In this document: one piece after another, positions 51 through 14,727 of the stretch
Layout of the letters: each line of letters opens with the position of its first letter
Position numbering within the stretch: the first letter of the stretch is position 1
From: an uncultured Collinsella sp.
GTDB lineage: Bacteria > Actinomycetota > Coriobacteriia > Coriobacteriales > Coriobacteriaceae
DNA: 14,728 nt
NCBI GenBank assembly: GCA_958346165.1
Contig: CATVQO010000021.1
Span: 1-14,728, forward strand
Direction: 5' to 3'
Notes under the pieces: generated by a model
The model's database searches: none
Seen by the model: only the letters and a program-made list of their open reading frames with translations
Told to the model about the DNA's origin: nothing
Made by a program: the position numbers and the translations under genes

Positions 51-101
51 GATTTATCTGACGGTTTAAAACGGTCTCACGTGTTACAGATTAAGACGTT
101 A
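51..101. repeat. Decayed copy (copy 1) of the 65-nt hairpin element
   Basis: The right arm, GTTACAGATTAAGACGTT at 83-100, is clearly preserved and matches the right arm of the copy at 9093-9157. The left side (about 51-62) keeps only ATCTG..AC and appears to have lost bases. The interval between arms is about 20 nt instead of the 27 nt seen in all other copies. I read it as a degenerate family member downstream of the transporter gene. Confidence 0.6.
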
Positions 102-1501: not shown

Positions 1502-1566
1502 AAATGTCTTGATCTGTAACATCTAGGCGCCAAAATTGGGTCTTCCTGTTACAGATTGAGATGTTT
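1502..1566 (+). repeat. 65-nt hairpin element, copy 2
   Basis: The left arm AAATGTCTTGATCTGTAAC (1502-1520), a 27-nt centre and the right arm GTTACAGATTGAGATGTTT (1548-1566) pair over all 19 positions of + strand RNA. Four of those pairs are G-U; on the other strand they would be A-C mismatches. The centre can fold further, for example CCAA at 1530-1533 with TTGG at 1536-1539. It lies between the divergent mntH and gltB genes. Confidence 0.85.
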
Positions 1567-1654
1567 GAAGCGGTGAGCTTGAAGACCGAACTTGGGGCCC
1601 TTGTTGCCGTCCTTGAGGTCGGCGGTGTCCACTCGTAGGGCGTGCGTTACGCGA

Positions 1655-1680
1655 TTGTTTCGAAACGGGTGGGAAACACA
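1655..1680. promoter_or_regulatory. Candidate operator upstream of gltB
   Basis: A perfect 10-bp palindrome GTTTCGAAAC (1657-1666) is followed by a second GAAAC at 1673-1677, 11 bp after the first, about one helical turn. Together they give TTGTTTC facing GAAACACAA. The site is about 70 bp upstream of the gltB start, where a nitrogen or LysR-type regulator could act. No regulator is encoded nearby and I see no clear promoter hexamers, so the function is a guess from position and symmetry. Confidence 0.3.
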
Positions 1681-1745
1681 ACGGGCCGGCGATGCCCCTA
1701 GTATGCCTATTCAACTGACTGTCTAACACCTAGGGGAGGATCGCG

Positions 1746-4700
1746 ATGCAGGCAGATTCCGCTCAGCAGCAGGGCCTTTATCGCCCCGAATTCGACCACG
1801 ATGCATGTGGCATCGGCGCGCTTGCCGATATCAACGGCGAGCGCCATCACCAGATCCTGGACGACGCACTGTCCATTCTGGTCAACTTGGAGCACCGCGG
1901 CGGCACGGGACTCGAGAAGAACACCGGCGACGGCGCCGGCATCCTGTTCCAGGTTCCGCATCACTTTTTCCGTAAAGAGGCTCAAAAGTGCGGTCAGATT
2001 CTGCCGGCAGAGGGCGACTATGGCGTGGCCATGCTGTTCTTCCCGCAGGACGACAAGGGTGTAGAGGATGCCCGCCGCGTGTTTGAGGAGGGCTGCGCCG
2101 AAGCCGGCGTGCCGCTGCTCTTCTGGCGCGAGGTGCCGGTCGACCCGCACGACCTGGGTGAGACGGCCCGCGCCTGCATGCCTACCATCCTGCAGGCCTT
2201 CCTGGGCCGTCCGGACGACACGCCCGCCGGCGATGCCTTTGAGCGTCGCCTGTATGTGTGCCGCCGCACCATCGAGAAGAAGGCCGACGCCGAGTTTGCC
2301 CTGCGCGACAAGATCTTCTATGTGTGCTCCATGAGCTCGCGCACCATCGTGTACAAGGGCATGCTGGTCGCCACGCAGATGCGCCGCTTCTTCATCGATC
2401 TCAACGACGCCGCCGTCAAGACGGCCGTGGCACTCGTCCACTCGCGCTACTCCACCAACACCACGCCCAGTTGGGAGCGCGCGCACCCCAACCGCTTTAT
2501 CATCCACAACGGCGAGATCAACACCCTCAAGGGCAACGTCAACTGGATTCGCGCCCGCGAACCCAATCTGTACAGCCCCGTGCTGCAGCATGATCTTGAG
2601 CGTGTGATTCCCATCATCAACCGCGAGGGCTCCGATTCCGCGATTTTGGACAACGTGCTCGAATTCTTGGTCATGAACGGTCGCCCGCTCACGCGTGCCG
2701 CGTCCATGTTGTTGCCCGAGCCGTGGGACCACAACGACAGCCTGAGCGAGGAACGCCGCGCCTACGACGCCTACCAGTCCATGCTCATGGAGCCCTGGGA
2801 CGGCCCGGCCGCCATCGCCTTTACCGACGGTCGCACGCTGGGTGCCGCCCTCGACCGCAACGGCCTGCGCCCCGCCCGCTACTACGTGACGCGCGACGGC
2901 CGCTTTATGCTGGCGAGCGAGGTGGGCACCATCGAGGTGAGCCCCGAGAACATCCTGACGAGCGGCTGTCTGGGACCGGGCCAGATGCTCGAGGTCGATT
3001 TTGCCCGCGGCCGCGTGATCTACAACGACGAGCTGCGCGCCCGTTACGCCAAGGAAAAGCCCTATCGCGACTGGATCGCCGAGGAGACGCTGACCGTCGA
3101 CGCGCTCGACAAGCCCGTCGCGCCCACGCCCGCCGAGGATACCGAGGTGCCCGCCGCCGTGCGCATGGCCAAGCTCGGCTATCACTGGGATGATGTTGAC
3201 GAGGTCGTGCGCCCCATGGCCCAGCAGGGCAAGGCCCCGCTCGCCTCGATGGGCATCGATGCGCCGCTGGCCTGCCTGTCCAAGAAGACGCGTTCGTTCT
3301 TCGACTACTTCTATCAGCTGTTCGCTCAGGTCACGAACCCGCCGATCGACGCCCTTCGCGAGCATATGGTCACCTCGACCACGCTCTACCTGGGTAACCA
3401 CGGCAACCTGCTCGAGGACTCCCGTACGGCCTGTCGGCTGGTGCGCCTGGAGCGTCCGCTGCTGAGCGAGGAGGAGTTCGAGCGTATCTGCGCCATCGAC
3501 CGCGTGGGCTTTAAGACCTGCCGTTTCCGTGCCGTCTACCGCCGCGATGCCGGCGAGGGCGCGCTGCAGGCTGCGCTCAAGCAGCTTGCAGAGGACGTTG
3601 AGGCTGCGGTCCGCGACGGCGTGAACATCGTGGTGCTGAGCGATCGTGCCGCTGCGGGCGAGGTGCCCGTGCCGTCGCTGCTCGCCGTGGGCTGCGTGCA
3701 CAACCACCTGATCCGCGCTGGCGTGCGTACCTTTGCCGACATCGTGGTGGAGTGTGGCGACGCCGTGTCCCCGCACGACTTTGCGGCACTGGTGGGCTAC
3801 TCCGCGAGCGGCATCTATCCGTACAACGCACATGCGTGCATCCGCGATCTGGCGGCACGCGGCGACCTGGACGTGACGGCCGAGCAGGGCATCGCCAACT
3901 ACAACAAGGCTGCGACCGCCGGCATCGTCTCCATCATGTCCAAGATGGGCATCTCTACGGTGCAGAGCTACCATTCGGCGCAGATCTTCGAGGCCGTGGG
4001 CTTTACGCCGGAGTTCGTCAACGCGTACTTCGCCGGCACGGTGAGCCGTGTGGGAGGTATGGGTGTCGAGGACGTCGAGCGCGAGCAGAATGAGCGCTAC
4101 GACGCCGCGCTCGCTATCCTTAAGAGCCCGGCTCCCGATCAGCTGCCCACGTTGGGCCTGACCAAGTGGCGCCCGCTCGGCGGCGAGGATCACCTCATCG
4201 ATCCGCAGACTGTCTACTTGCTGCAGACCGCCTGCTGTGAGGACAGCTACGACACCTTTAAGGAGTACAGCGCCCGCCTGCACCGCACCGGCCGTGCCGT
4301 GCGCCTGCGCGACTTGCTGGACTTTGATGCCGGCGGCCGCACGCCGGTTTCGCTCGACGAGGTCGAGCCCGCGCTCAACATCGTCCGCCGCTTTAACACC
4401 GGCGCCATGTCGTACGGCTCCATCAGCAAGGAAGCACACGAGTGCATGGCCATCGCCATGAACCGCCTGCACGGCCGTTCCAACTCGGGCGAGGGCGGCG
4501 AGGACCCGCGTCGCGAGACCCCGCTGGCTAACGGTGACTCCAAGAACTCCGCCATCAAGCAGGTGGCAAGCGCGCGCTTTGGCGTGACGAGCCGCTACCT
4601 GTGCAGCGCCTTCGAGATTCAGATCAAGATGGCCCAGGGCGCCAAGCCCGGCGAGGGCGGTCACCTGCCCGGCAAGAAGGTCTACCCTTGGATTGCCGAG

Positions 4701-6443
4701 GTCCGTCAGTCCACACCCGGTATCGGCCTGATCTCGCCTCCGCCGCACCACGACATCTACTCCATCGAGGACCTGGCGGAGCTTATCTTCGATCTTAAGA
4801 ACGCCAACCCCGGCGCACGCGTGTCGGTCAAGCTGGTCAGTGAGGCCGGCGTCGGCACCATCGCCACCGGCGTTGCCAAGGGTGCTGCCGACAAGATTTT
4901 GATCAGCGGCCATAACGGCGGCTCGGGTGCTGCGGCGCGCGATTCCATTTGGCACGCGGGTCTGCCGCTGGAGCTCGGTCTTGCCGAGGCCCAGCAGACG
5001 CTGCTGCAAAACGGCCTGCGCTCGCGCGTGGTGCTCGAGGCCGACGGCAAGCTCATGGACGGCACCGATGTTGCCGTCGCCTGCCTGCTGGGTGCCGAGG
5101 AGTTTGGCTTTGCGACCATGCCGCTCATCTCCATGGGCTGCCTCATGCAGCGCGACTGCCAGCAGGATACCTGCCCGGCCGGCATCGCTACGCAAAACTG
5201 CCGCCTGCGTCGCGGCTTCCGCGGCAAGCCAGAGCACGTCGAGCACTTTATGCTCTTTGTTGCCGAGCAGCTGCGCGAGGTCATGGCGAGCCTGGGCTTC
5301 CGCACCATCGACGAGATGGTCGGCCATCCCGAGTGCTTGCGCCAGATTGAGGTCCCGGGCAACCGCAAGGCTAACCTGCTGGATCTGTCGCCCGTGCTGG
5401 CGAGCGCGACCTGTGAGTTTGGTGCCCACATCCCGGGTGCCGACGGCCGTCACTTCCTGCCCCAGATGGCTGCGGACAGTGAGCTCGACAAGACGCTCGA
5501 CTCCACGTTGTTTGTGCCCTATACGGCCGATGCCCGTGCGCACCTGCGTCCGATTCGCTTCCGCGCCGATATCGCCAACGTCAACCGCTGCGTGGGCACC
5601 ATCTTGGGCAACGCGGTGACCAAGGCGCATCCCGAGGGCCTGCCCGCCGGCTCCATCACCATCGATTGCGATGGTTCGGCCGGTCAGAGCTTTGGTGCCT
5701 TCCTGCCGCGCGGCATTACGCTCAACGTGTGCGGCGACGCCAACGACTACTTTGGCAAGGGCCTTTCGGGCGGCGAGGTGTCGGTGCGCCCCAACCCGCA
5801 TGCGACCTACAAGTTCGATGAGAACATCATCGTGGGCAACGTTGCGTTCTTTGGCGCCACGAGCGGCCGCGGCTTCATTAACGGCCTGGCAGGCCAGCGC
5901 TTTGGCGTACGCAACTCCGGTGCCACCGTGGTGGTCGAGGGCTGCGGCAACCATGGCTGCGAGTACATGACGGGTGGTCTGGCACTCATCCTGGGCGAGG
6001 TCGGGCAGAACTTCGCCGCCGGCATGACGGGTGGCGTGGCCTATGTCTTTGACCAGTACGGCACGCTCGATGCCCGTGTGAACCACGAGAGCGTCGAGCT
6101 TAAAGCCCCGACGGCCGGCGAGCTGGCGCAGATTCGCGAGCTCATCCAGGAGCACGTGGACGCGACGCAGAGCCCGCGCGGCATTAAGCTGCTCTACAGC
6201 TTTGAGACGATGAGCAAGCACTTTGTGAAGGTCATTCCGACCGAGTACGAGCGCGTGCTGGCGATTGTCGCCGCCGCCGAGGCCGTCGGCAAGACGCATG
6301 CGCAGGCCGAGGAGCTGGCGTTTGACATTGTGACCGGTCGCGCGAGCGCCGCGGATGTTGCTCGCTTCGATGTTGCGGGCGGTGCTGCGGGCGCTGCGTC
6401 CGTGGCTGCCAGCTCTGTTGCTTCGACCAAGAAGGAGGCGTAA
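1746..6443 (+). CDS. gltB: Glutamate synthase, large (glutaminase/FMN) subunit
   Basis: With GltD it converts glutamine plus 2-oxoglutarate to two glutamates in the cytoplasm. The protein has 1565 residues, slightly longer than the usual ~1500. Order: a short propeptide, then the Ntn-amidotransferase domain starting at the nucleophile Cys21 (DHDACGIG); a central domain (about 480-770); the FMN/2-oxoglutarate synthase domain (about 815-1190) with SNSGEGGED near 911 and the 3Fe-4S cysteines 1132, 1138 and 1143 (spacing C-x5-C-x4-C); and the GXGXG beta-helix domain (about 1265-1460). The FMN-domain loop usually written GHDGGTGA reads GHNGGSGA near residue 1054, a conservative divergence. The last ~30 residues are an Ala/Ser-rich tail ending KKEA. 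The start is supported by AGGGGAGG 6 nt upstream. gltD follows after 5 nt, so the two are co-transcribed. Confidence 0.98.
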   Translation: MQADSAQQQGLYRPEFDHDACGIGALADINGERHHQILDDALSILVNLEHRGGTGLEKNTGDGAGILFQVPHHFFRKEAQKCGQILPAEGDYGVAMLFFPQDDKGVEDARRVFEEGCAEAGVPLLFWREVPVDPHDLGETARACMPTILQAFLGRPDDTPAGDAFERRLYVCRRTIEKKADAEFALRDKIFYVCSMSSRTIVYKGMLVATQMRRFFIDLNDAAVKTAVALVHSRYSTNTTPSWERAHPNRFIIHNGEINTLKGNVNWIRAREPNLYSPVLQHDLERVIPIINREGSDSAILDNVLEFLVMNGRPLTRAASMLLPEPWDHNDSLSEERRAYDAYQSMLMEPWDGPAAIAFTDGRTLGAALDRNGLRPARYYVTRDGRFMLASEVGTIEVSPENILTSGCLGPGQMLEVDFARGRVIYNDELRARYAKEKPYRDWIAEETLTVDALDKPVAPTPAEDTEVPAAVRMAKLGYHWDDVDEVVRPMAQQGKAPLASMGIDAPLACLSKKTRSFFDYFYQLFAQVTNPPIDALREHMVTSTTLYLGNHGNLLEDSRTACRLVRLERPLLSEEEFERICAIDRVGFKTCRFRAVYRRDAGEGALQAALKQLAEDVEAAVRDGVNIVVLSDRAAAGEVPVPSLLAVGCVHNHLIRAGVRTFADIVVECGDAVSPHDFAALVGYSASGIYPYNAHACIRDLAARGDLDVTAEQGIANYNKAATAGIVSIMSKMGISTVQSYHSAQIFEAVGFTPEFVNAYFAGTVSRVGGMGVEDVEREQNERYDAALAILKSPAPDQLPTLGLTKWRPLGGEDHLIDPQTVYLLQTACCEDSYDTFKEYSARLHRTGRAVRLRDLLDFDAGGRTPVSLDEVEPALNIVRRFNTGAMSYGSISKEAHECMAIAMNRLHGRSNSGEGGEDPRRETPLANGDSKNSAIKQVASARFGVTSRYLCSAFEIQIKMAQGAKPGEGGHLPGKKVYPWIAEVRQSTPGIGLISPPPHHDIYSIEDLAELIFDLKNANPGARVSVKLVSEAGVGTIATGVAKGAADKILISGHNGGSGAAARDSIWHAGLPLELGLAEAQQTLLQNGLRSRVVLEADGKLMDGTDVAVACLLGAEEFGFATMPLISMGCLMQRDCQQDTCPAGIATQNCRLRRGFRGKPEHVEHFMLFVAEQLREVMASLGFRTIDEMVGHPECLRQIEVPGNRKANLLDLSPVLASATCEFGAHIPGADGRHFLPQMAADSELDKTLDSTLFVPYTADARAHLRPIRFRADIANVNRCVGTILGNAVTKAHPEGLPAGSITIDCDGSAGQSFGAFLPRGITLNVCGDANDYFGKGLSGGEVSVRPNPHATYKFDENIIVGNVAFFGATSGRGFINGLAGQRFGVRNSGATVVVEGCGNHGCEYMTGGLALILGEVGQNFAAGMTGGVAYVFDQYGTLDARVNHESVELKAPTAGELAQIRELIQEHVDATQSPRGIKLLYSFETMSKHFVKVIPTEYERVLAIVAAAEAVGKTHAQAEELAFDIVTGRASAADVARFDVAGGAAGAASVAASSVASTKKEA

Positions 6444-6448
6444 GTGCC

Positions 6449-7930
<1,482 letters not shown>

Positions 7931-7940
7931 GGCAGTCATT

Positions 7941-8007
7941 CAAGAGTGTCCCCAACGACTAGTCATTGGGGACACTCTATTTTGTCTAGTCGCCGGGGAC
8001 ACTCTTG
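7941..8007. repeat. GGGGACACTCT three-arm repeat element
   Basis: The arm CAAGAGTGTCCCC (7941-7953) is complementary to two downstream arms: 7966-7978 (used in the terminator) and a second, GGGGACACTCTTG (7995-8007), matching all 13 bases. The two downstream arms belong to direct repeats CTAGTCATTGGGGACACTCT (7959-7978) and CTAGTCGCCGGGGACACTCT (7986-8005), 27 bp apart, with three differences. Two mutually exclusive hairpins are therefore possible. The GGGGACA core is shared with the element at 11311-11381. Confidence 0.6.
7943..7983 (+). terminator. Rho-independent terminator of gltBD
   Basis: AGAGTGTCCCCAA (7943-7955) and TTGGGGACACTCT (7966-7978) form a perfect 13-bp stem around a 10-nt loop, followed by ATTTTG. 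It starts 12 nt after the gltD stop. The same stem sequence recurs downstream, so this terminator is also part of a larger repeat, described separately. Confidence 0.75.
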
Positions 8008-8140
8008 ACGTCTGACCGCTCATTTGCTGACGTGCGGACTCGCGGTACCTTGCTGTTTTCGTGATGGCTGTGGCTGGCAAGCTCAAAATCTCTGCTTATT
8101 TGCCTATGTTTAACTGGGGTTTTGTTTCGGTATAACGTAT

Positions 8141-8176
8141 CGGTCAAGCGTTCCGTCAAGTATTCGGTCAGTATCT
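8141..8176. repeat. Three 12-bp direct repeats (CGGTCA-type)
   Basis: CGGTCA (8141), CCGTCA (8153) and CGGTCA (8165) begin exactly 12 bp apart, inside similar 12-mers such as CGGTCAAGCGTT. They lie about 100 bp upstream of the unknown gene and just after a TATAAC hexamer. An operator for a repeating-site regulator is possible; with only three units, chance or a decayed repeat cannot be excluded. Confidence 0.45.
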
Positions 8177-8272
8177 GGTTTGCAACCCGATGCTCATTTC
8201 GCCCGCGCTGGCGGCGACCGCGAGCCCTCCTCGTAAGCTCAAATTGAGGTTCATCAGTTTGAGGAGGATGCC

Positions 8273-8980
8273 ATGGCTGATCATGTTTTGGACCGGGGAC
8301 GTCTGGCCGAGGCCGTCGGTGACGATATTGCCGACATGGCCCAGTTTTGGATGCTGCGAAAGTTCCAGTTTTTGGAGTCGGCGCGCACACAGTTCGAAGT
8401 GATAGTCGATCCATGGCTCAGCTATTGCGAGGAGCCCTCGCAAAACGAAATCATGGCCTATAACATGGCATTTACCGATTGGCTGCTGTTTGAGCGCCCC
8501 TATTACCACGGCAAGACGCTGCTTGGGCTGTATGTTGACGAGCCGCCGGCGTCGCTTTCGCCTGCTTCGCTCAGGCGGCTCGAACAGGTGCGCGACACGC
8601 ACTATTTCTCTCGCTTTGGCATTTTGGACAAGGATCCGGCGACTGGTATGGTCGCGCTGCGCGATACGCGCACCGACCGTCGTTTTGATGTCTACGACCC
8701 ACATATCGTGCAAAAAGAGCACTGGCGCGATGGTGCGATTGCGGTGCGCATCGCGTGCGTTGACGATATTTTGCTGACGGCGGGGCAGCTCTACCTCTAC
8801 GACATTGCGCACCTGAGCGATACGGCGGTCGACGGGCCCGGCGCCGTTCATCCGGAAGACCTGGAAGATGGCTTCGATACCTCGTGTATCAGCTTCTTTC
8901 TGAGGCTGGTCCGCGACGTCATGGGTGCCCGGGGACGGTATGTGAAGTCGCTCAACATCTACGAACAGGAATGGGAGTAG
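8273..8980 (+). CDS. Hypothetical protein, 235 residues, function not recognised
   Basis: I do not recognise this gene with confidence. It is a soluble, acidic protein with no signal peptide, no membrane segment and no metal-binding Cys cluster. A segment near residues 65-80 (DWLLFERPYYHGKTLLGLY) resembles the DW-[FL]-[LI]-F...G-K-T-LL pattern I associate with poorly characterised proteins that sometimes carry a SEC-C zinc motif; no such motif is present here. The middle (about 110-175) looks like alternating beta strands, and the C-terminal 40 residues look helical. The start is well supported by GAGGAGG 5 nt upstream of the ATG. Codon use is less biased than in gltBD, suggesting modest expression. 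It is apparently monocistronic, with the repeat-rich regions on both sides. That it is a real gene is likely; its role is unknown. Confidence 0.8.
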   Translation: MADHVLDRGRLAEAVGDDIADMAQFWMLRKFQFLESARTQFEVIVDPWLSYCEEPSQNEIMAYNMAFTDWLLFERPYYHGKTLLGLYVDEPPASLSPASLRRLEQVRDTHYFSRFGILDKDPATGMVALRDTRTDRRFDVYDPHIVQKEHWRDGAIAVRIACVDDILLTAGQLYLYDIAHLSDTAVDGPGAVHPEDLEDGFDTSCISFFLRLVRDVMGARGRYVKSLNIYEQEWE

Positions 8981-9011
8981 GGTTGGGCTGTCGCAGCGCC
9001 GCCGCCTGTCT

Positions 9012-9076
9012 ATTTGTCTCGGTCTGTAACGTCTAGAGACCGTTTGGACCCGTAGTTGTTACAGATCGAGATGAAC
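9012..9076 (+). repeat. 65-nt hairpin element, copy 3
   Basis: The left arm ATTTGTCTCGGTCTGTAAC (9012-9030) and right arm GTTACAGATCGAGATGAAC (9058-9076) pair at 18 of 19 positions on the + strand, three as G-U; only the outermost pair fails. The centre is exactly 27 nt and contains CC(GTTT)GG at 9040-9047, with further pairing outward (for example CTA 9033-9035 with TAG 9053-9055). It is the first member of a doublet. Confidence 0.85.
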
Positions 9077-9092
9077 AGGTGCAGACTCGACT

Positions 9093-9157
9093 GAATGTCT
9101 CGATCTGTAACAACAAGGGGCCGTTTGGCCATCTACCTGTTACAGATCAAGACGTTT
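9093..9157 (+). repeat. 65-nt hairpin element, copy 4
   Basis: The left arm GAATGTCTCGATCTGTAAC (9093-9111) and right arm GTTACAGATCAAGACGTTT (9139-9157) pair at 18 of 19 positions, two as G-U and one as a C-A mismatch. The 27-nt centre contains a perfect GGCC(GTTT)GGCC hairpin at 9119-9130. It starts 81 nt after copy 3 starts, leaving a 16-nt linker. Confidence 0.85.
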
Positions 9158-9304
9158 TGCTGGAACGACCGAAGCATCGCTGCGCTGGTCTGTTTATCCT
9201 CACGTCCTTCTCTTCCTCCCGTTAGCCGATATGTCCGCAGTAACCCTGTCGCGCTGGGCGATAATGGACAAATGTTCATGTTAATCGTGAGGGAGGAGCT
9301 CGAT

Positions 9305-10675
9305 ATGGCGTCTGCCGATCGTTCCACGTTGTTTATCAATGCGACCGTTCTGGATGGTTCGGAACATATGGAGCCGCAGCCCGACATGGCCGTGGTCGTC
9401 GAACGCGGCGTCATCACATGGATGGGGCCGAGTGCTGTGGCGCAGGCGCCTGCAGGTGCCGAGGTCATCGACCTGGCAGGGGCGTATCTCATGCCAGGCC
9501 TCATCAATATGCATGTGCATCTGTGCGGCTCGGGCAAGCCGGTTTCGGCGGGCGATGCGGGCGCGCTGATGAAAAAGCTCGATAATCCCGTGGGGCGCGC
9601 CATCGTGCGCCACATTCTTAAGGGCAGCGCCCAACAACAGCTGGCAAGCGGCGTGACAACGGTACGTGGCGCGGGCGACCCGCTGTTTGCGGATCTTGCC
9701 GTGCGCGATGCTATCGATGCCGGCAAGTATCAAGGTCCTCGCCTGGTGGCGCCGGGAACGGGCGTTACGGTGCCGGGGGGCCATGGTGCTGGCTTGTTCG
9801 CCCAGGTGGCTAACAGTCCCGCCGAGGCGGCCGAACAGGTGCGCGACCTGTATGCGCGCGGTGCCGATGTCATTAAACTGTTCGTAACGGGCGGCGTGTT
9901 CGATGCGACTGAGGTGGGCGAGCCGGGCGTGCTGCGCATGCCGGTCGATGTCGCCGCGGCGGCGTGCAAGGCGGCGCACGATATGGGCCTTCCGGTTATG
10001 GCCCATATCGAGAGCACCGAGGGCGTGAAGGCCGCGCTTGAGGCCGGCGTTGACACGATTGAGCACGGCGCTCCGTTGACGCCCGAGATCCTGGAGCTGT
10101 ACCGCGGCGCCGCGGGTACACAGCTTGAGGGGCGTGCGCCCAGCGTGACCTGCACCATCAGCCCCGCACTGCCGTTTGTATTGCTCGATCCGGAGAAGAC
10201 TCATTCGACTGACACGCAAAAGAAGAACGGCGACATCGTATGCTCGGGCATTATCGAGAGTGCGCGTGCGGCGCTGGAAGCCGGTATCAAGGTAGGCCTG
10301 GGCACGGATTCGAGCTGCCCGTTCGTGACCCAGTACGACATGTGGCGCGAGGTGGCCTATTTTGCCAAGTACGTGGGCGTGAGCAATGCGTTTGCGCTGC
10401 ATACGGCCACGCAGGTCAATGCCGAGCTGCTGGGCCTGGGCGGCGAGACCGGCACAATCGAGTGCGGTAAGGTCGCCGATATCCTGGTGACGCGCGAGAA
10501 CCCGCTCGATGACCTGTGCGCTCTGCGTGAGCCAATGCACGTGATGTGCCGCGGTGATCTGGTGCGCAAGCTCAAGGTGAAGCGTATCCCCGAGGTTGAT
10601 AACGAGCTCGACACGATTATGGCCATGCCGGCTGAGGCGCTGGCCGAGGAGCTCGCCCGCGACGGCGTAGCTTAG
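9305..10675 (+). CDS. Metal-dependent amidohydrolase (imidazolonepropionase/prolidase-like)
   Basis: This is a 456-residue cytoplasmic enzyme of the amidohydrolase superfamily, with a composite beta-sandwich plus TIM barrel. The metal-site residues are in canonical order: His70 and His72 (MHVHL), Lys191 (VIKLFVTGG, the usual carbamylated bridging lysine), His234 (MAHIES), His254 (IEHGAP) and Asp335 (LGTDSS). This set fits a binuclear-metal hydrolase. Characterised relatives hydrolyse Xaa-Pro or Xaa-Arg/Lys dipeptides or cyclic amides; the substrate here cannot be read from the sequence. I chose the ATG at 9305 because GGAGGAG lies 6 nt upstream and the beta-sandwich starts soon after it. The frame is open upstream to 9095, but that part overlaps the repeat element. 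It appears monocistronic and ends at a strong bidirectional terminator. No transporter or peptide-degradation partner is adjacent. Confidence 0.88.
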   Translation: MASADRSTLFINATVLDGSEHMEPQPDMAVVVERGVITWMGPSAVAQAPAGAEVIDLAGAYLMPGLINMHVHLCGSGKPVSAGDAGALMKKLDNPVGRAIVRHILKGSAQQQLASGVTTVRGAGDPLFADLAVRDAIDAGKYQGPRLVAPGTGVTVPGGHGAGLFAQVANSPAEAAEQVRDLYARGADVIKLFVTGGVFDATEVGEPGVLRMPVDVAAAACKAAHDMGLPVMAHIESTEGVKAALEAGVDTIEHGAPLTPEILELYRGAAGTQLEGRAPSVTCTISPALPFVLLDPEKTHSTDTQKKNGDIVCSGIIESARAALEAGIKVGLGTDSSCPFVTQYDMWREVAYFAKYVGVSNAFALHTATQVNAELLGLGGETGTIECGKVADILVTRENPLDDLCALREPMHVMCRGDLVRKLKVKRIPEVDNELDTIMAMPAEALAEELARDGVA

Positions 10676-10688
10676 GCGCTGGCGCGAC

Positions 10689-10720
10689 GGGGCGACAGCT
10701 TTATCGAATGATGTCGCCCC
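10689..10720 (+). other. GC-rich hairpin just after the amidohydrolase stop
   Basis: GGGGCGACA (10689-10697) and TGTCGCCCC (10712-10720) form a perfect 9-bp stem with a 14-nt loop. There is no T-tract after it, so it is not a complete intrinsic terminator. It may protect the mRNA 3' end or pause polymerase before the strong terminator that follows. Confidence 0.5.
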
Positions 10721-10725
10721 ATGCA

Positions 10726-10760
10726 AAAAGCCGAGGTCTCAGTGCGAGGCCTCGGCTTTT
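10726..10760. terminator. Strong bidirectional terminator between convergent genes
   Basis: AAAAGCCGAGGTCTC (10726-10740) pairs with GAGGCCTCGGCTTTT (10746-10760) over 15 bp with one G-U, around a 5-nt loop AGTGC. The A-tract and T-tract flanks give a U-run on either strand. It lies between the rightward amidohydrolase and the leftward zinc-ribbon gene, and can end both transcripts. Confidence 0.9.
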
Positions 10761-10782
10761 ATTTTGCCCTATGGTGTAGCGG

Positions 10783-11256
10783 CTAGGAGCGCGTTTCCAT
10801 CTTGGCGTGGCACTTGGGGCAGGTGACGCGGATCTTGCCCTTGCCCTTGGGGACGGACAGCATCTGGCCGCAGTTGGGGCACTTGAGGTACGCCGTGGTC
10901 TTGCGGCCCTTCCACATCTTCTTGGCCGTTCGCTTGGCGCGCTCAAAGTCTTCCTTGCTGGTGCCGGCCGCGCGCGAGGCGTTGGAAGCCGCAGTCCCGC
11001 CGCCCAAGCTGGCGACGTATTTGCCCAAGCCGGGAACATTGGCAGTCGCGGCGACAAAGGTCTCGTTCTCCTTGCGACGTGCATCGATGTTTTTGGACAG
11101 GCCGCGCAGCACGCCAATTACGATGACGGCGATGGCGATCCAGCTGAGCCACTGGATGTGGGCTATCGATCCGATCATCGCGATGATGATGCCGGCAAAA
11201 CCCATTACGATGGTGAGTTCATCGGCGCCATTGCGACCCTTCATAAAGTCATTCAT
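10783..11256 (-). CDS. Small membrane protein with C-terminal zinc ribbon
   Basis: The 157-residue protein has two adjacent hydrophobic segments (about 15-32 and 36-51), which should place it in the cytoplasmic membrane as a hairpin. A basic, Gly/Ala-containing linker (about 52-120) leads to a zinc ribbon. The ribbon has Cys126/129 (CPNCG) and Cys146/149 (CPKCH), with LSVPKGKGKIRVT between them, close to the short MJ0042/RpoP-like ribbon pattern found fused to membrane segments in gut Firmicutes and actinobacteria. Its biochemical role is unknown. I chose the ATG at 11256 (AAAGG about 9 nt upstream); an upstream in-frame GTG at 11286 has no ribosome site. It is transcribed alone toward the shared terminator. 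The copper operon upstream on the same strand is separated from it by a repeat-rich gap. Confidence 0.82.
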   Translation of the reverse strand: MNDFMKGRNGADELTIVMGFAGIIIAMIGSIAHIQWLSWIAIAVIVIGVLRGLSKNIDARRKENETFVAATANVPGLGKYVASLGGGTAASNASRAAGTSKEDFERAKRTAKKMWKGRKTTAYLKCPNCGQMLSVPKGKGKIRVTCPKCHAKMETRS

Positions 11257-11310
11257 GCAAATTGCCTTTCGTTCGATATGCTGCACGCCTTTATACCCGA
11301 TTTAGAGCAA

Positions 11311-11381
11311 GGGGGACAGGTTAATCTGCACCAATGTGGTGCAAACATACCTGTCCCCGGAACACCAAGACGGTGCAAAGA
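11311..11381. repeat. GGGGACAGGT two-tier palindromic element
   Basis: The outer arms GGGGACAGGT (11312-11321) and ACCTGTCCCC (11349-11358) are exact complements. They enclose an inner hairpin TGCACC(AATGT)GGTGCA at 11327-11343. A diverged second copy of the inner unit follows: CACCAATGTGGTGCAAACA (11329-11347) and CACCAAGACGGTGCAAAGA (11363-11381) match at 15 of 19 positions. The element sits between csoR and the zinc-ribbon gene and could also stop the copper transcript. Its form resembles REP-type palindromes mobilised by Y1 (RAYT) transposases, but no transposase is in view. Confidence 0.65.
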
Positions 11382-11402
11382 AGTCTGTTTCCAATGCCCC
11401 AA

Positions 11403-11675
11403 TTACTTGGAGAGTTTGTCGACGACGCGTTCGATCTCGGCGAGCTTGGCGGCTTTGAGGTCTTCGTCGCCCGATTCGATTGCCGAAGTCACGCAGCCCT
11501 CGATATGCGCCTTGAGCACGTCGGCGTTGATGCGCGCGAGGAGCGCCTGTGTGGCCATGAGCTGCGTGGAAATATCGACGCAATAGCGGTCCTCATCGAC
11601 CATCCGCAAGATGCCGTCGATCTGGCCGCGTGCCGTCTTGAGCATGCGGGTCACCGATTTGTGGTCTGCCATCAT
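11403..11675 (-). CDS. csoR: CsoR-family copper-sensing transcriptional repressor
   Basis: This 90-residue, all-helical DNA-binding protein should repress the copper operon and release DNA when it binds Cu(I). The Cu(I) ligands are in the exact CsoR spacing: Cys32, His57 and Cys61 (C-x24-H-x3-C), the same spacing as in the Mycobacterium tuberculosis protein. This separates it from the related nickel (RcnR) and formaldehyde (FrmR) sensors. The start at the first of two consecutive Met codons is supported by GAGGA about 6 nt upstream. It is the last gene of the copA-copZ-csoR unit, 48 nt after copZ. A likely target is the G/C dyad at 14496-14508 in the copA promoter, which would make the operon self-repressing. 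Confidence 0.93.
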   Translation of the reverse strand: MMADHKSVTRMLKTARGQIDGILRMVDEDRYCVDISTQLMATQALLARINADVLKAHIEGCVTSAIESGDEDLKAAKLAEIERVVDKLSK

Positions 11676-11723
11676 GGCGGGTCCTCGTTTCTGGTCGATG
11701 GGGTCGAGTGCTTCTGGTAGCTG

Positions 11724-11945
11724 CTACGCGGCGGTCACGGACAGGGCGTGGAACTTCTCGCCCGCGGCCTCGACGGCGGCGGCGAGCTGCTCGGCGGTCA
11801 CGGTGTCGGCGCACTTCACCTGGACGGTCTGGGTCTCGTGATCGGCGTCGGCGTCGGTCACGCCGACCACGTTGAGCAGTGCCGTCTCGACAGTGGCGTC
11901 GCAGTGGCCGCACATGAGGCCGGAAGTCTTGATTGTGTAACGCAT
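11724..11945 (-). CDS. copZ: Copper chaperone, single heavy-metal-associated domain
   Basis: This 73-residue cytosolic protein is a single ferredoxin-like HMA domain. It should bind Cu(I) through Cys12 and Cys15 (GLMCGHC) and deliver it to CopA or CsoR. The His in CGHC is typical of CopZ-type chaperones. I chose the ATG at 11945 because GAGAGGGA lies just upstream and the HMA fold starts at once. The frame runs open to 12056, but that extension overlaps an inverted repeat and lacks a ribosome site. It is the middle gene of the copper operon, 147 nt after copA. The long gap holds a structured repeat, so its expression may be uncoupled from copA. HMA chaperones for other metals exist, but the neighbours point to copper. 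Confidence 0.92.
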   Translation of the reverse strand: MRYTIKTSGLMCGHCDATVETALLNVVGVTDADADHETQTVQVKCADTVTAEQLAAAVEAAGEKFHALSVTAA

Positions 11946-11988
11946 GGGTATCCCTCTCTGTTGTGTCGGCTTTCCCAGCCACCCGACC

Positions 11989-12046
11989 TTGACCTTCAAG
12001 CCGTCGCTCGCGTACCAAAGTACGCGTCGCTCCTCTTTCAGGTCAA
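11989..12046 (-). repeat. Compound inverted repeat between copA and copZ
   Basis: On the operon strand the outer arms TTGACCT and AGGTCAA enclose a central 7-bp hairpin CGCGTAC(TTTG)GTACGCG, with symmetric 13-nt internal loops between them. GAGCGACG-like repeats flank the central hairpin. A second possible stem (GTCGG with CCGAC, 11965-11988) adjoins it toward copZ. It may be an mRNA processing or stability element, or a dispersed repeat; there is no T-tract for termination. Confidence 0.6.
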
Positions 12047-12092
12047 TCTCGGGCACCTGGAAAACCCGTTCTAAATGGACTTAATGGTGAGC

Positions 12093-14435
12093 CTATTTTG
12101 CCACTTTAGGCTTAAAGGATTTTAGGCGCAGCGCATTGCTTACGACGCAGACGCTCGACAGGCTCATGGCCGCGGCGCCAAACATCGGCGAGAGCTGCCA
12201 TCCGGTGAGCGGGAAGAACACGCCCGCCGCCAGCGGAATGCCGATGCCGTTGTAGAACAGTGCCCAGAACAGGTCCTGCTTGATGTTGCGGATCGTGGCG
12301 CGCGAAAGCTCGATGGCGCGGGCGACGTCCATGAGGTCGCTGCGCATGAGTACCACGTCGGCGCCCTCCTTGGCGATGTCGGCGCCGGTGCCGATAGCGA
12401 GGCCCACGTCGGAGCGCGCCAGGGCGGGGGAGTCGTTGATGCCGTCGCCCACCATGGCGACCTTGCCGCCCGCATCCTGCAGTTCGCGCACGTGGCGCTC
12501 CTTGTCGGCGGGAAGAACGTCGGCGATAACCTGCTCGCTGGTGAGTCCCACGCGGCGGGCGATGGCCTCTGCTGTCACGCGGTTGTCACCGGTGAGCATG
12601 CGCACGTCGACGCCGAGCTTGCGGAGCGCGGCGATGGCCTCGGCACTCGTTTCTTTGACCTCGTCAGCCACGGCGATGGTGCCAACGAGCTCGCTGTTCT
12701 TGGCAAAGAACAGCGGCGTTTTGCCCTCGGTGGCAAATTGCTCGGCAAGGTCCGTAGGCACGGCAGCACCCAACTCGTTCATCAGACGAACGTTGCCGGC
12801 TGCGATGGTATTCTGCCCCTCGCGTGCCGTAACGCCTCGTCCGGGCACGGCGGCAAAGTCCTCGACCATGCGTGCGACGATTCCGCGCGTTTCGCACTCG
12901 GCCATAATCGCCTCGGCCAGTGGGTGCTCACTCTGGCGCTCTAGTGCGGCGGCAAGCTTGAGCAGCGCCTTTTCACTCATGGCGGGCGAGCCGTCGGCGC
13001 GCGCTGCAACCACGATATCGGTCACGGCCGGCTTGCCGCGGGTGACGGTGCCCGTCTTATCGAGCACCACGGTGCCCACGTTGCGCAGATTCTCCAGCGC
13101 CTCGGCGCTCTTAAACAGGATGCCCATCTCGGCGCCCTTGCCGGTGCCCACCATAATGGCGACGGGCGTGGCCAGGCCCAGCGCGCACGGGCAGCTGATC
13201 ACCAGCACGGCCACGGCGGAGGTGAGCGCCTCGTTCACGCTGCCGGTCAGTGCCATCCACGCCACAAAGGTCACGGCCGAGATTGCAAACACCACGGGCA
13301 CAAACACGCCGGCGACCTTATCGGCCATGCGGGCAATGGGCGCCTTGGTGGCGTTGGCGTCCTCGACAAGCTGGATGATCTTGGCAAGCGACGTGTCGGC
13401 GCCCACGCGTGTGGCACGGAAGGTAAACGATCCGGTGCGGTTGACCGTGGCGGCGTTGACGGTGTCACCGGCGGCCTTTTCCACGGGGATGGACTCGCCG
13501 GTGAGCGCGCTCTCGTCCACGGCCGACGCGCCCTCGAGTACCACGCCGTCGACAGGGATAGACTCGCCGGGGCGCACACGCAGGACCTGGCCGGGAAGGA
13601 TGCTGTCGACGTCGACGGTGGTCTCGGTGCCGTCGTCGGCAACGACGGTCGCGGTCTTGGGTGCTAGGTCGATGAGTGCCTCGATAGCGCCGCCGGTTTT
13701 GGACTTGCTGCGCGTCTCGAGATATTTGCCCACGGTGACGAGCGACAGGATGGTGCCGGCGCTCTCAAAATACAGGTTGTCCATGCCTGTCATCATAGCC
13801 TCGTGAACCTGCCCGGCGGCCAGCTGGTCGGCCATGATAAACATGGCGTAGAGCGACCAGGCAATGGAAGCGGTGGCACCGACGGCGATGAGGGCGTCCA
13901 TGGTGGGCGCGCCGTGCACGAGTGATTTGAAGCCGTTGATAAAGTACGCGTCGTTGATGTAGACGATGGGGATGAGCAGGACAAGCTCGGTGAGGGCGAG
14001 CGTCATGCTGTGGATATGGTCCGTGAAGATGCCGGGCAGCGGCCAGCCGAGCATGTGTCCCATGCCTATGTAGAACAGCGGGATAAGAAAGATGATTGAG
14101 ATGATGAGTCGGGTGCGCATAGCGGAGGCAGTGGCCTCTAGCTTTTTGGTGGGCGACTCCATATGGGTGGCTCCGGATCTGGCTTGCGCGTTGCCGCTTG
14201 AGTTGGCGGCATCGGTGCCCGTGCTGACGGGCGAGGCCGAATAGCCCGCGCGGTCGACGGCAGTGCAGATATCGTCGGGGGAGACCTGCGCGGGGTCATA
14301 GTCGACCATCATGGAACCGGCGAGCAGGTTGACCGCGACGCTTTGGACGCCGTCGAGCTTGCTCACGGCGCGGTCCACGTGCGCCTGGCAAGCGGCGCAT
14401 GTCATGCCGCCCACGTCGAACTTATCTTGAGCCAT
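12093..14435 (-). CDS. copA: Cu(I)-exporting P1B-type ATPase
   Basis: This 780-residue membrane pump uses ATP to export Cu(I) from the cytoplasm. Order: one N-terminal HMA domain with Cys13/Cys16 (GMTCAAC); a ~30-residue Ser/Ala/Gly-rich linker (about 70-100); two platform helices; the actuator domain with TGES (312-315); the transport site CPC (415-417); the phosphorylation motif DKTGT (Asp459); the nucleotide-domain HP (504-505); and GDGINDSP (663-670). The helix-7 YN (728-729) and helix-8 MSLSS (757-761) are the remaining Cu(I) determinants of P1B-1 pumps. All catalytic residues are present. The start is supported by AAAGGAG 6 nt upstream. It is the first gene of the copA-copZ-csoR operon, with a copper-repressor-like dyad in its promoter. 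Confidence 0.97.
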
Positions 14436-14482
14436 GGCTTCTCCTTTCTGTGGCGTAGTGTTGGAATTGTTAACCTGCCGAT

Positions 14483-14513
14483 ACTATACACCCATACCCC
14501 CTGGGGGTGTCCA
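14483..14513 (-). promoter_or_regulatory. copA promoter with embedded G/C dyad operator
   Basis: On the minus strand, TGGACA (14513-14508) and TATAGT (14488-14483) resemble -35 and -10 boxes with a 19-bp spacer. Within the spacer lies ACCCCC-T-GGGGGT (14496-14508), a perfect 6+1+6 dyad overlapping the -35 edge. G/C-tract dyads of this kind are typical CsoR operators, and csoR ends the operon. The 19-bp spacer would also fit a CueR/MerR-type activator, but none is encoded here. Confidence 0.65.
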
Positions 14514-14522
14514 GTACAGAAA

Positions 14523-14539
14523 GAAATGTATGACATTTC
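14523..14539. other. Small hairpin upstream of the copA promoter
   Basis: GAAATG (14523-14528) and CATTTC (14534-14539) are perfect complements around TATGA. It lies just upstream of the copA -35 box. It could be a second regulator site or be without function; the sequence gives no further hint. Confidence 0.3.
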
Positions 14540-14582
14540 GATACAGATGAGGGTGGCTGCTCAATCGTTGGCAGCCCCTGTC

Positions 14583-14647
14583 AAACATCTCAACCTGTAA
14601 CATCTAACAGGGAAAATGACCTCTAACTGTTACAAATCGAGATTTTG
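14583..14647 (-). repeat. 65-nt hairpin element, copy 5 (inverted orientation)
   Basis: The arms AAACATCTCAACCTGTAAC (14583-14601) and GTTACAAATCGAGATTTTG (14629-14647) flank a 27-nt centre. Read on the minus strand they pair at 17 of 19 positions with three G-U pairs; on the plus strand those three become mismatches. This copy is therefore oriented opposite to copies 2, 3 and 6. It lies about 150 bp upstream of copA. Confidence 0.8.
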
Positions 14648-14662
14648 TTTTGCGTGGCTGAG

Positions 14663-14727
14663 TTCTGTCTTGATCTGTAACGGTTCGGCCGGTTTTTGCT
14701 GAGCAGCTGTTGCAGATTGAGACAATC
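14663..14727 (+). repeat. 65-nt hairpin element, copy 6
   Basis: The left arm TTCTGTCTTGATCTGTAAC (14663-14681) and right arm GTTGCAGATTGAGACAATC (14709-14727) pair over the inner 16 positions on the + strand, three as G-U; the outer three fail. The centre is again exactly 27 nt. It starts 80 nt after copy 5 starts, with a 15-nt linker, and ends at the window edge. Confidence 0.8.

What the first reader, a model, noticed from the sequence alone, without database searches (positions are those of the whole stretch)
1502..14727. A 65-nt intergenic hairpin family with a fixed 19-27-19 architecture
Five copies (1502-1566, 9012-9076, 9093-9157, 14583-14647, 14663-14727) share 19-nt complementary arms around an interval of exactly 27 nt; a sixth decayed copy is at 51-101. 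All lie outside genes, in four intergenic regions within 14.7 kb, which suggests many copies per genome. There is no U-tract after the stem, so they are not ordinary terminators, and no transposase is nearby. I know of no described element of this form. It may be a REP/MITE-like ssDNA hairpin or a family of structured RNAs.
Basis: seen in the sequence. Interest (0 to 1): 0.82.

Follow-up and report, generated by a model that had tools for sequence, protein, structure and literature searches.

The report
Collinsella intergenic 40-bp half-site lattice
Gut bacteria of the Collinsella aerofaciens group carry dozens of copies of a rigidly spaced mirror-image DNA motif between their genes; the way it changes between relatives says it is kept as a landing pad for a DNA-binding protein, not as a hairpin or an RNA, and neither the protein nor the job is known.

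Summary
In detail: five 65-nt copies lie where stated, each with a 27-nt centre (0 expected), plus a half-eroded sixth. They belong to a large family seen in part of the genus Collinsella: 22 of 43 Collinsella genomes have 18-47 exact copies, one has 1, 20 have 0; a stricter pattern hits 23 of 297 genomes of the order, all in one of 107 genera. The centre is 27 nt in 460 of 465 close matches over centre lengths 23-31. Of 280 neighbour distances under 300 bp, 266 are 80 or 81, so half-sites form a lattice of about 40-bp steps in alternating orientation.
The hairpin/RNA reading is not supported: the arms vary independently and several centre positions avoid pairing, yet fixed arm bases differ in 1.8% of ortholog-like comparisons against 15.6% in linkers. 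This fits a dyad-symmetric double-stranded protein-binding site in cooperative arrays. The protein is unknown. One lead, a small serine recombinase, co-occurs (20 of 21 array-bearing genomes, 0 of 21 others at 87% identity or more), but clade membership confounds this. Arrays gain or lose 80-bp units and bound gene losses.

The parts
1502..1566 (.). Unit 1 (half-site blocks 1507-1521 and 1547-1561, centre 27 nt), in the divergent gap between an Nramp transporter gene (mntH-like, - strand) and gltB; one unit here, three in 14 of the 21 sequences compared at this locus
9012..9076 (.). Unit 2, first of a two-unit array between a 235-aa gene without Pfam match and an amidohydrolase gene
9077..9092 (.). 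16-nt linker between units 2 and 3 (start-to-start 81 bp)
9093..9157 (.). Unit 3
14583..14647 (.). Unit 4, upstream of a heavy-metal P-type ATPase gene (- strand, starts 14435)
14648..14662 (.). 15-nt linker between units 4 and 5 (start-to-start 80 bp)
14663..14727 (.). Unit 5
82..96 (.). Right half-site of a sixth, eroded unit (expected left half-site 42-56 has 8 mismatches of 15)

Best explanation
Each copy is a dyad-symmetric binding site in double-stranded DNA for a sequence-specific protein, probably a dimer (or two dimers), and the arrays are multi-site platforms on which that protein assembles cooperatively. The strongly held half-site is TCTCRATCTGTAACA; a weaker A/T flank outside, an inner TAG and an A/T tract at the dyad are preferred. 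Two inverted half-sites face each other, and in arrays half-sites alternate in orientation at 40- to 41-bp steps. Shown: fixed geometry, strong constraint on arm sequence, no constraint on base pairing, intergenic position next to convergent, divergent and co-oriented genes alike, unit-wise gain and loss. Inferred: that a protein reads it, that it binds cooperatively, and that its role is chromosome architecture or topology (as reported for gyrase and IHF on E. coli BIMEs) rather than control of particular genes. Recombination between arrays, which removes 80-bp units and sometimes the gene between two arrays, is most simply ordinary homologous recombination through the ~15-20 nt arms.
For: Centre 27 nt in 460 units against 3 at 26, 2 at 28, 0 at 23-25 and 29-31 (114 loci, some overlapping, 422 of 462 units distinct). 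Neighbour distances under 300 bp: 80 in 173, 81 in 93, 79 in 7, 78 and 82 in 1 each, and 5 at 159-235, of 280. Lattice: left-to-right 40 bp in 164 of 167; right-to-left 40 in 75, 41 in 25, 39 in 3 of 103; 7 of 345 strong half-sites unpaired. Arms vary independently. In 339 ortholog-like pairs fixed arm positions differ in 1.8%, linkers in 15.6%, the free R/Y position inside the same arm (+-23) in 13.4%: this argues against a mutational cold spot. Few decayed copies: of 462 units 431 have 0-2, 29 have 3-4 and 2 have more mismatches. Context of 32 arrays: 13 co-oriented, 9 convergent, 8 divergent, 2 at a stretch edge.
Against: No protein is identified and no binding was measured. Gene conversion among copies could help keep arms alike, although it would not spare the R/Y positions. 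In the set that was not deduplicated, pairing at +-13, 22, 25, 26 and 27 was slightly above its shuffles (for example 0.99 against 0.97); after deduplication it was not. The inner TAG (15.3%) and outer A/T (12.2%) change about as fast as linkers, so only the 15-nt core is firmly held. A/T-rich positions near 0, 10, 21 and 31 suggested a ~10-bp rhythm, but +-13, 15-17, 19, 25 and 27 are A/T too and no null was run. Gene-context counts were not compared with a genome-wide expectation. Orientation of the A/T tract does not follow the replichore. One unit in G022 has a 22-nt centre; G015 has lost the whole array at one locus.
Confidence: 0.55

Rival explanations
1. BIME/REPIN-like selfish repeats: pairs of inverted short elements copied by a REP-associated tyrosine transposase (RAYT) that recognises them as single-stranded hairpins.
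For: Intergenic, clade-specific, inverted pairs, regular arrays, sometimes hit by insertion sequences, unit-wise gain and loss. All 21 array-bearing genomes have a PF01797 protein.
Against: 15 of 21 array-less genomes have PF01797 too. No unit lies in the 8-kb stretches around three of the five PF01797 genes of G001 (the other two, strong IS200-type matches, were not examined), and two of the three sit among other repeats. Arms show no compensating changes, whereas for REPs preserved palindromes through complementary mutations are reported (PMC2817692, passages).
Confidence: 0.12
2. Sites of a resident small serine recombinase (201 aa, PF00239 Resolvase with C-terminal HTH-like stretch): the unit is a res/six-like complex site at which it synapses arrays and deletes or exchanges units and the genes between them.
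For: Orthologue at 87% identity or more in 20 of 21 array-bearing genomes (split over two contigs in G062; the miss is the 72%-complete G027), in 0 of 21 others, 6 of which have 58-69% homologues. In 15 of the 20 it is on the same contig as mntH and 6-13 kb from it, beside the densest array cluster; in 5 on another contig. Gene segments between arrays are absent in some genomes.
Against: The array-bearing genomes are the closest kin by mntH, so any gene specific to that clade would show this pattern. No unit lies in the 20-kb stretch with the gene in G001, nor a full unit in that of G015. Unit-loss junctions fall in the left arm, the right arm or the centre, not at one point. No comparable array was seen in the stretches around the homologues of six array-less genomes.
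Confidence: 0.1
3. A structured RNA family or bidirectional terminator: the units are transcribed and act as hairpins.
For: Strong folding of four of the five window copies.
Against: No covariation on 52 units or 124 clusters; G.U and A.C combinations occur as independence predicts; no U-tract; present in divergent gaps; no Rfam family near its threshold.
Confidence: 0.06
4. Immobile MITE relics that stay alike only through gene conversion.
For: Conversion-like swaps of half-centres between arrays; 19-nt inverted repeats at the ends.
Against: Fixed spacing of neighbours, fixed centre, linker-like rate at R/Y positions within conserved arms. No parent transposon with these ends was met, but none was searched for.
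Confidence: 0.1

Closest known systems
E. coli BIME-2 (arrays of REP palindromes that bind DNA gyrase; IHF binds BIME-1)
   Same: Intergenic, palindromic, several units at regular spacing in alternating orientation, unit number varies between relatives, hit by insertion sequences
   Different: Different sequence; a 15-nt core half-site rather than a compact REP hairpin; strict 27-nt centre and 40-bp half-site steps; no compensatory changes; about 22 arrays in G001; gyrase binding untested
REPIN/RAYT systems (REPIN details recalled)
   Same: Two inverted conserved ends around a variable middle, clade-specific, vertically kept
   Different: No RAYT-like gene found beside units in G001; two of three examined sit among other repeats; middle of fixed length
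res/six sites of small serine recombinases (Tn3-type, Sin, beta; recalled)
   Same: Inverted half-sites in tight fixed geometry; a small serine recombinase co-occurs
   Different: Unit longer than a single recombinase dimer site; recombination junctions not at a fixed point; binding untested
parS/matS/Tus-type chromosome-organising sites (recalled)
   Same: Dispersed, conserved double-stranded sites
   Different: Arrays of 1-6 units in fixed phase, no replichore orientation seen in G001, found in one clade only

Membership tests
REP/BIME | extragenic, multi-copy, with a consensus motif | tested here: met
REP/BIME | palindrome kept by complementary changes (stem-loop under selection) | tested here: not met
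REP/BIME | binding of gyrase, IHF or Pol I | not testable with these tools
   needs biochemistry
REPIN/RAYT | cognate RAYT gene flanked by the element | tested here: not met
   three of five PF01797 loci of G001 examined: no units in their 8-kb stretches, two with other repeats; RAYTs of other genomes not examined
REPIN/RAYT | RAYT presence tracks element presence | tested here: inconclusive
   PF01797 in 21 of 21 array-bearing and 15 of 21 array-less genomes; subtypes not separated
Structured RNA | covarying stem | tested here: not met
Structured RNA | match to an Rfam family | tested here: not met
Intrinsic terminator | stem followed by a U-tract | tested here: not met
   sequence of the five window copies
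MITE | target-site duplication and an autonomous parent element | not tested
   no search made
Serine recombinase res/six site | recombination junction at a fixed dinucleotide | tested here: not met
   junctions read by eye in left arm, right arm and centre
Serine recombinase res/six site | binding by the recombinase | not testable with these tools
   needs EMSA
Phage/element attB site | integrases insert at the unit repeatedly | tested here: not met
   one insertion in a unit, at the same locus in G001, G019 and G010; the related prophages of G015 and L216 use another attB

The most novel reading that the evidence does not exclude
The C. aerofaciens clade has a resident chromosome-wide system in which a clade-specific DNA-binding protein (possibly the co-inherited small serine recombinase) polymerises on a 40-bp lattice of alternating half-sites, organises the chromosome at about two dozen places, and makes these places exchange points where 80-bp units and whole genes are gained and lost.
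Probability: 0.12. Interest if true: 0.85.

Novelty: new variant of a known kind. Interest (0 to 1): 0.62.

Why it matters
It looks like a palindromic hairpin repeat, but its evolution shows that pairing is not what is kept; other catalogued palindromic RNA or REP candidates could be tested the same way. It gives a precise, abundant bait for finding a new chromosome-binding protein in a common human gut bacterium, and it marks places where genes between neighbouring arrays are absent in some relatives.

Tried and rejected
Structured RNA / ssDNA hairpin: no covariation; a slight excess at five arm positions in the undeduplicated set vanished on deduplication. RAYT partner: PF01797 does not separate the groups, and three of five such loci of G001 carry no units. 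Orientation by replichore: none seen (left arm 18 T, 10 A, 2 undecided; right arm 11 T, 8 A; dnaA, terminus assumed opposite). Phage attB: an element with a tyrosine integrase (PF00589 at 26.5 bits, under the 27.1 cut-off; the integrase frames of G001, G019 and G010 contain stops) sits in a unit arm in G001, but the same locus is occupied in G019 and G010, and the 99%-alike integrases of G015 and prophage L216 use a different site. Same architecture with other arms in sister genomes: G025 has a TGTGACA-N20-TGTCACA family and G022 an ATGTCAGTTAAGCC palindrome whose pattern with a 24-30 nt gap hits 1 of 42 genomes (3 places); its 27-nt gap is a coincidence because the stem continues inwards. IS21-like insertion preference: 2 of 6 copies in G001 lie inside units, 0 of 6 examined (of 7) in G015; too few to conclude. 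The 2 non-Collinsella loci among the 80 listed lack the outer arms. Serine-recombinase homologues in six array-less genomes: no comparable array in the fetched stretches. Units in phage records: none; in plasmid records: one, a Collinsella record.
Full report
WHAT IS THERE. Five 65-nt elements lie at the stated coordinates, each with 19-nt arms around a 27-nt centre; 200 shuffles of the window give none. A sixth keeps only its right half-site (82-96).

FAMILY. In G001 the pattern CTGTAAC-N20-40-GTTACAGA gives 39 forward and 41 reverse matches, 0 for the reversed control; the listed matches all have a 27-nt centre. In 43 Collinsella genomes 22 have 18-47 copies of a stricter pattern, one has 1 and 20 have none (reversed control 0). 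In 297 genomes of the order a still stricter pattern hits 23, all in one of 107 genera. Over 78 residues of the mntH-like protein the array-bearing genomes match the window at 94-100%, G025 at 86%, G022 at 80%, the rest at 43% or less; this is not a species tree. G014 and G028 hold one unit each; G022 holds one with a 22-nt centre followed by half of another.

GEOMETRY. In 114 partly overlapping loci (422 distinct of 462 units) 460 units with at most 4 mismatches of 30 arm positions have a 27-nt centre, 3 have 26, 2 have 28, none 23-25 or 29-31. Of 280 neighbour distances under 300 bp 173 are 80, 93 are 81, 9 are 78, 79 or 82, and 5 are 159-235. Written as half-sites (TCTCRATCTGTAACA and its complement) the arrays are a lattice: 164 of 167 left-to-right steps are 40 bp, right-to-left steps are 40 (75), 41 (25) or 39 (3) of 103, and 7 of 345 strong half-sites have no partner. 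One G013 array has block starts 1191, 1231, 1271, 1311, 1350, 1390, 1430, 1470 (L311). Thus '19-27-19 hairpin' is one way to frame a regular array of alternating half-sites. G001 has 22 arrays in the fetched stretches: 6 single, 6 double, 9 triple, 1 quadruple.

NOT A HAIRPIN. The profile of 401 distinct units shows arms RTCTCRATCTGTAACA, an inner TAG/CTA at +-8 to 10 and an A/T tract at the dyad. The free positions +-23 (A/G against C/T) and +-28 vary independently on the two sides. On 124 clusters that share under 60% outside the arms, pairing at +-23 is 0.500 against 0.489 expected, at +-28 0.476 against 0.527; at centre positions +-1, 3, 5 and 12 it is far below expectation (0.145 against 0.459; 0.185 against 0.298; 0.202 against 0.373; 0.105 against 0.318). 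Against this, the undeduplicated 401 showed pairing slightly above shuffles at +-13, 22, 25, 26 and 27, which deduplication removed. The pair counter on 47 G001 units plus the five of the window gives 85.0% paired against 85.5% in shuffles (403 of 500 at least as high) and covariation 0.121 against 0.127 (of 49 G001 units the two cut by insertions, L040:12140 and L052:4203, were not included). Observed and independent-expected counts at the two free pairs agree to within one sequence. RNAalifold finds a covariation term of -0.02 kcal/mol. For REPs, palindromes preserved by complementary mutation are reported (PMC2817692, passages).

UNDER SELECTION. Among 167 units of 15 regions, 339 pairs from different genomes with linker identity of at least 70% were compared: fixed arm positions differ in 1.8%, linkers in 15.6%, R/Y positions at +-23 in 13.4%, +-28 in 11.4%, +-24 in 22.3%, outer A/T in 12.2%, inner TAG in 15.3%, centre +-2 to 7 in 20.8%, the dyad A/T tract in 8.1%. 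So the core is firmly held, TAG and outer A/T hardly. The pairs are not independent and were chosen by linker identity. Of 462 units 202, 149, 80, 21 and 8 have 0, 1, 2, 3 and 4 mismatches, 2 have more (80 of the loci were chosen for an exact copy, which favours good ones).

EVOLUTION. In the 15 compared regions orthologous arrays differ mostly by whole units: 67, 147/148, 227/228, about 307, about 390 and about 468 bp between unchanged flanks. Exceptions: one locus is off by about 35 bp in G019, G020, G031 and G063 (about 342 for four units), one by about 12 bp in G019 (159 for two), others by a few bp. At mntH-gltB, 14 of 21 sequences have three units, G020, G063 and G010 two, and the window, G011, G061 and G005 one (G062, G025 and G022 could not be anchored). 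Junctions, read by eye, lie in the left arm, right arm or centre, and half-centres are swapped between arrays, as expected of homologous recombination or conversion through short homology. A ~1.1-kb segment with one gene between two arrays is missing in the window, G011, G015 and G010, and a ~3.4-kb segment in G015 and G013; the direction of change is inferred. In the dense cluster each compared locus keeps at least one unit, apart from '0' entries that arise where a missed unit split one array in two; at the GDSL-lipase locus G015 has lost the whole array.

CONTEXT. 32 arrays: 13 between co-oriented, 9 convergent, 8 divergent genes, 2 at a stretch edge; 7 overlap a crude ORF call; no genome-wide expectation was computed. 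In the annotated stretch of NZ_OY725717.1, 13 of 13 units lie between CDS. Flanking genes examined are metabolism, transport, regulation and unknowns.

WHO READS IT. Unknown. A 201-aa serine recombinase (PF00239; WP_055285671.1) has an orthologue (at least 87% identity) in 20 of 21 array-bearing and 0 of 21 array-less genomes, 6-13 kb from mntH in the 15 genomes where both are on one contig, but clade membership alone predicts this, no full unit lies in the 20-kb stretch with the gene in G001 or G015 and junctions are not at a fixed point. I hold it as a lead.

LITERATURE. Searches: Collinsella + intergenic + repeat + palindromic (5 papers), Collinsella aerofaciens + inverted repeat, REP/BIME/gyrase/nucleoid (30 papers, 12 listed), the two arm words (298 papers, 10 listed), Collinsella + intergenic repeats (none). 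No listed title describes this family; the unlisted papers were not seen. Seen: passages of PMC8040213 (one Collinsella motif upstream of L7/L12 and 250 palindromic candidates; its tables were not seen, so this family could be among them), PMC12306157 (no occurrence of Collinsella in the main text), PMC2817692 and PMC6379681 (gyrase motif with 10.75-bp periodic flanks, BIME-2 enriched); abstract of PMC1525189. Tn3/Sin/beta res sites, REPIN details, parS and matS are recalled.

VERDICT. A real, large, clade-restricted family; its hairpin look is most likely a by-product of dyad symmetry in a double-stranded binding site. It may work like a BIME-type architectural array but fails the hairpin criterion of REPs, so I do not file it as one.

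Noticed in passing
L040:9776-12151 and L048:6041-10686 (G001): IS21-like elements (ends TGTTAGCGCCGG...CCGGCGCTAACA) inserted inside units with apparent 4-bp target duplications; 2 of 6 copies in G001.
   Followed up: partly
L052:4267-8600 (G001 1712 kb); also L273, L275: Element with a tyrosine-integrase-like gene, XRE regulator and DUF3800 protein inserted in the right arm of a unit; the same locus is occupied in G019 and G010.
   Followed up: yes
L226, L229, L230, L231 (G025): Sister genome has another intergenic palindrome, TGTGACA-AAAAGTCGACAGGTTTATTT-TGTCACA and variants, at two places as inverted pairs about 72 bp apart, also near its mntH.
   Followed up: no
L232:18244-18380, L237, L238 (G022): Another long palindrome family, ATGTCAGTTAAGCCTCGAAATCG with complement, 3 exact places, one a tandem pair about 72 bp apart.
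   Followed up: partly
L214 and L048:10811-12358: G028, without the family otherwise, holds one unit plus at least 1.5 kb at 91% identity to G001, homology starting at the unit: looks like horizontal transfer with the unit at the boundary.
   Followed up: partly
L256:3166-4217, L257:3214-4358: Two PF01797 transposase genes of G001 lie among their own repeats (GGGGACAG and CCGTCCCAAATTGACTACC types).
   Followed up: partly
NZ_OY725717.1 (L285): Record labelled 'plasmid 6' (899,693 bp) of C. aerofaciens TSDC17.2-1.1 carries smpB, gltB, ftsX: probably a mislabelled piece of the chromosome.
   Followed up: no
L299:12593 and L310:16428 (G018): Sequence CTGTCTCTTATACACATCTAGATGTGTATAAGAGACAG looks like a transposase-library adapter junction left in the assembly (recalled).
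   Followed up: no
L298:8794 and L312:11346: Another inverted repeat, AGTTGCGGTGAAATAGG...ATTTCACCRCAACT, in the stretches that hold the serine recombinase gene in G001 and G015.
   Followed up: no
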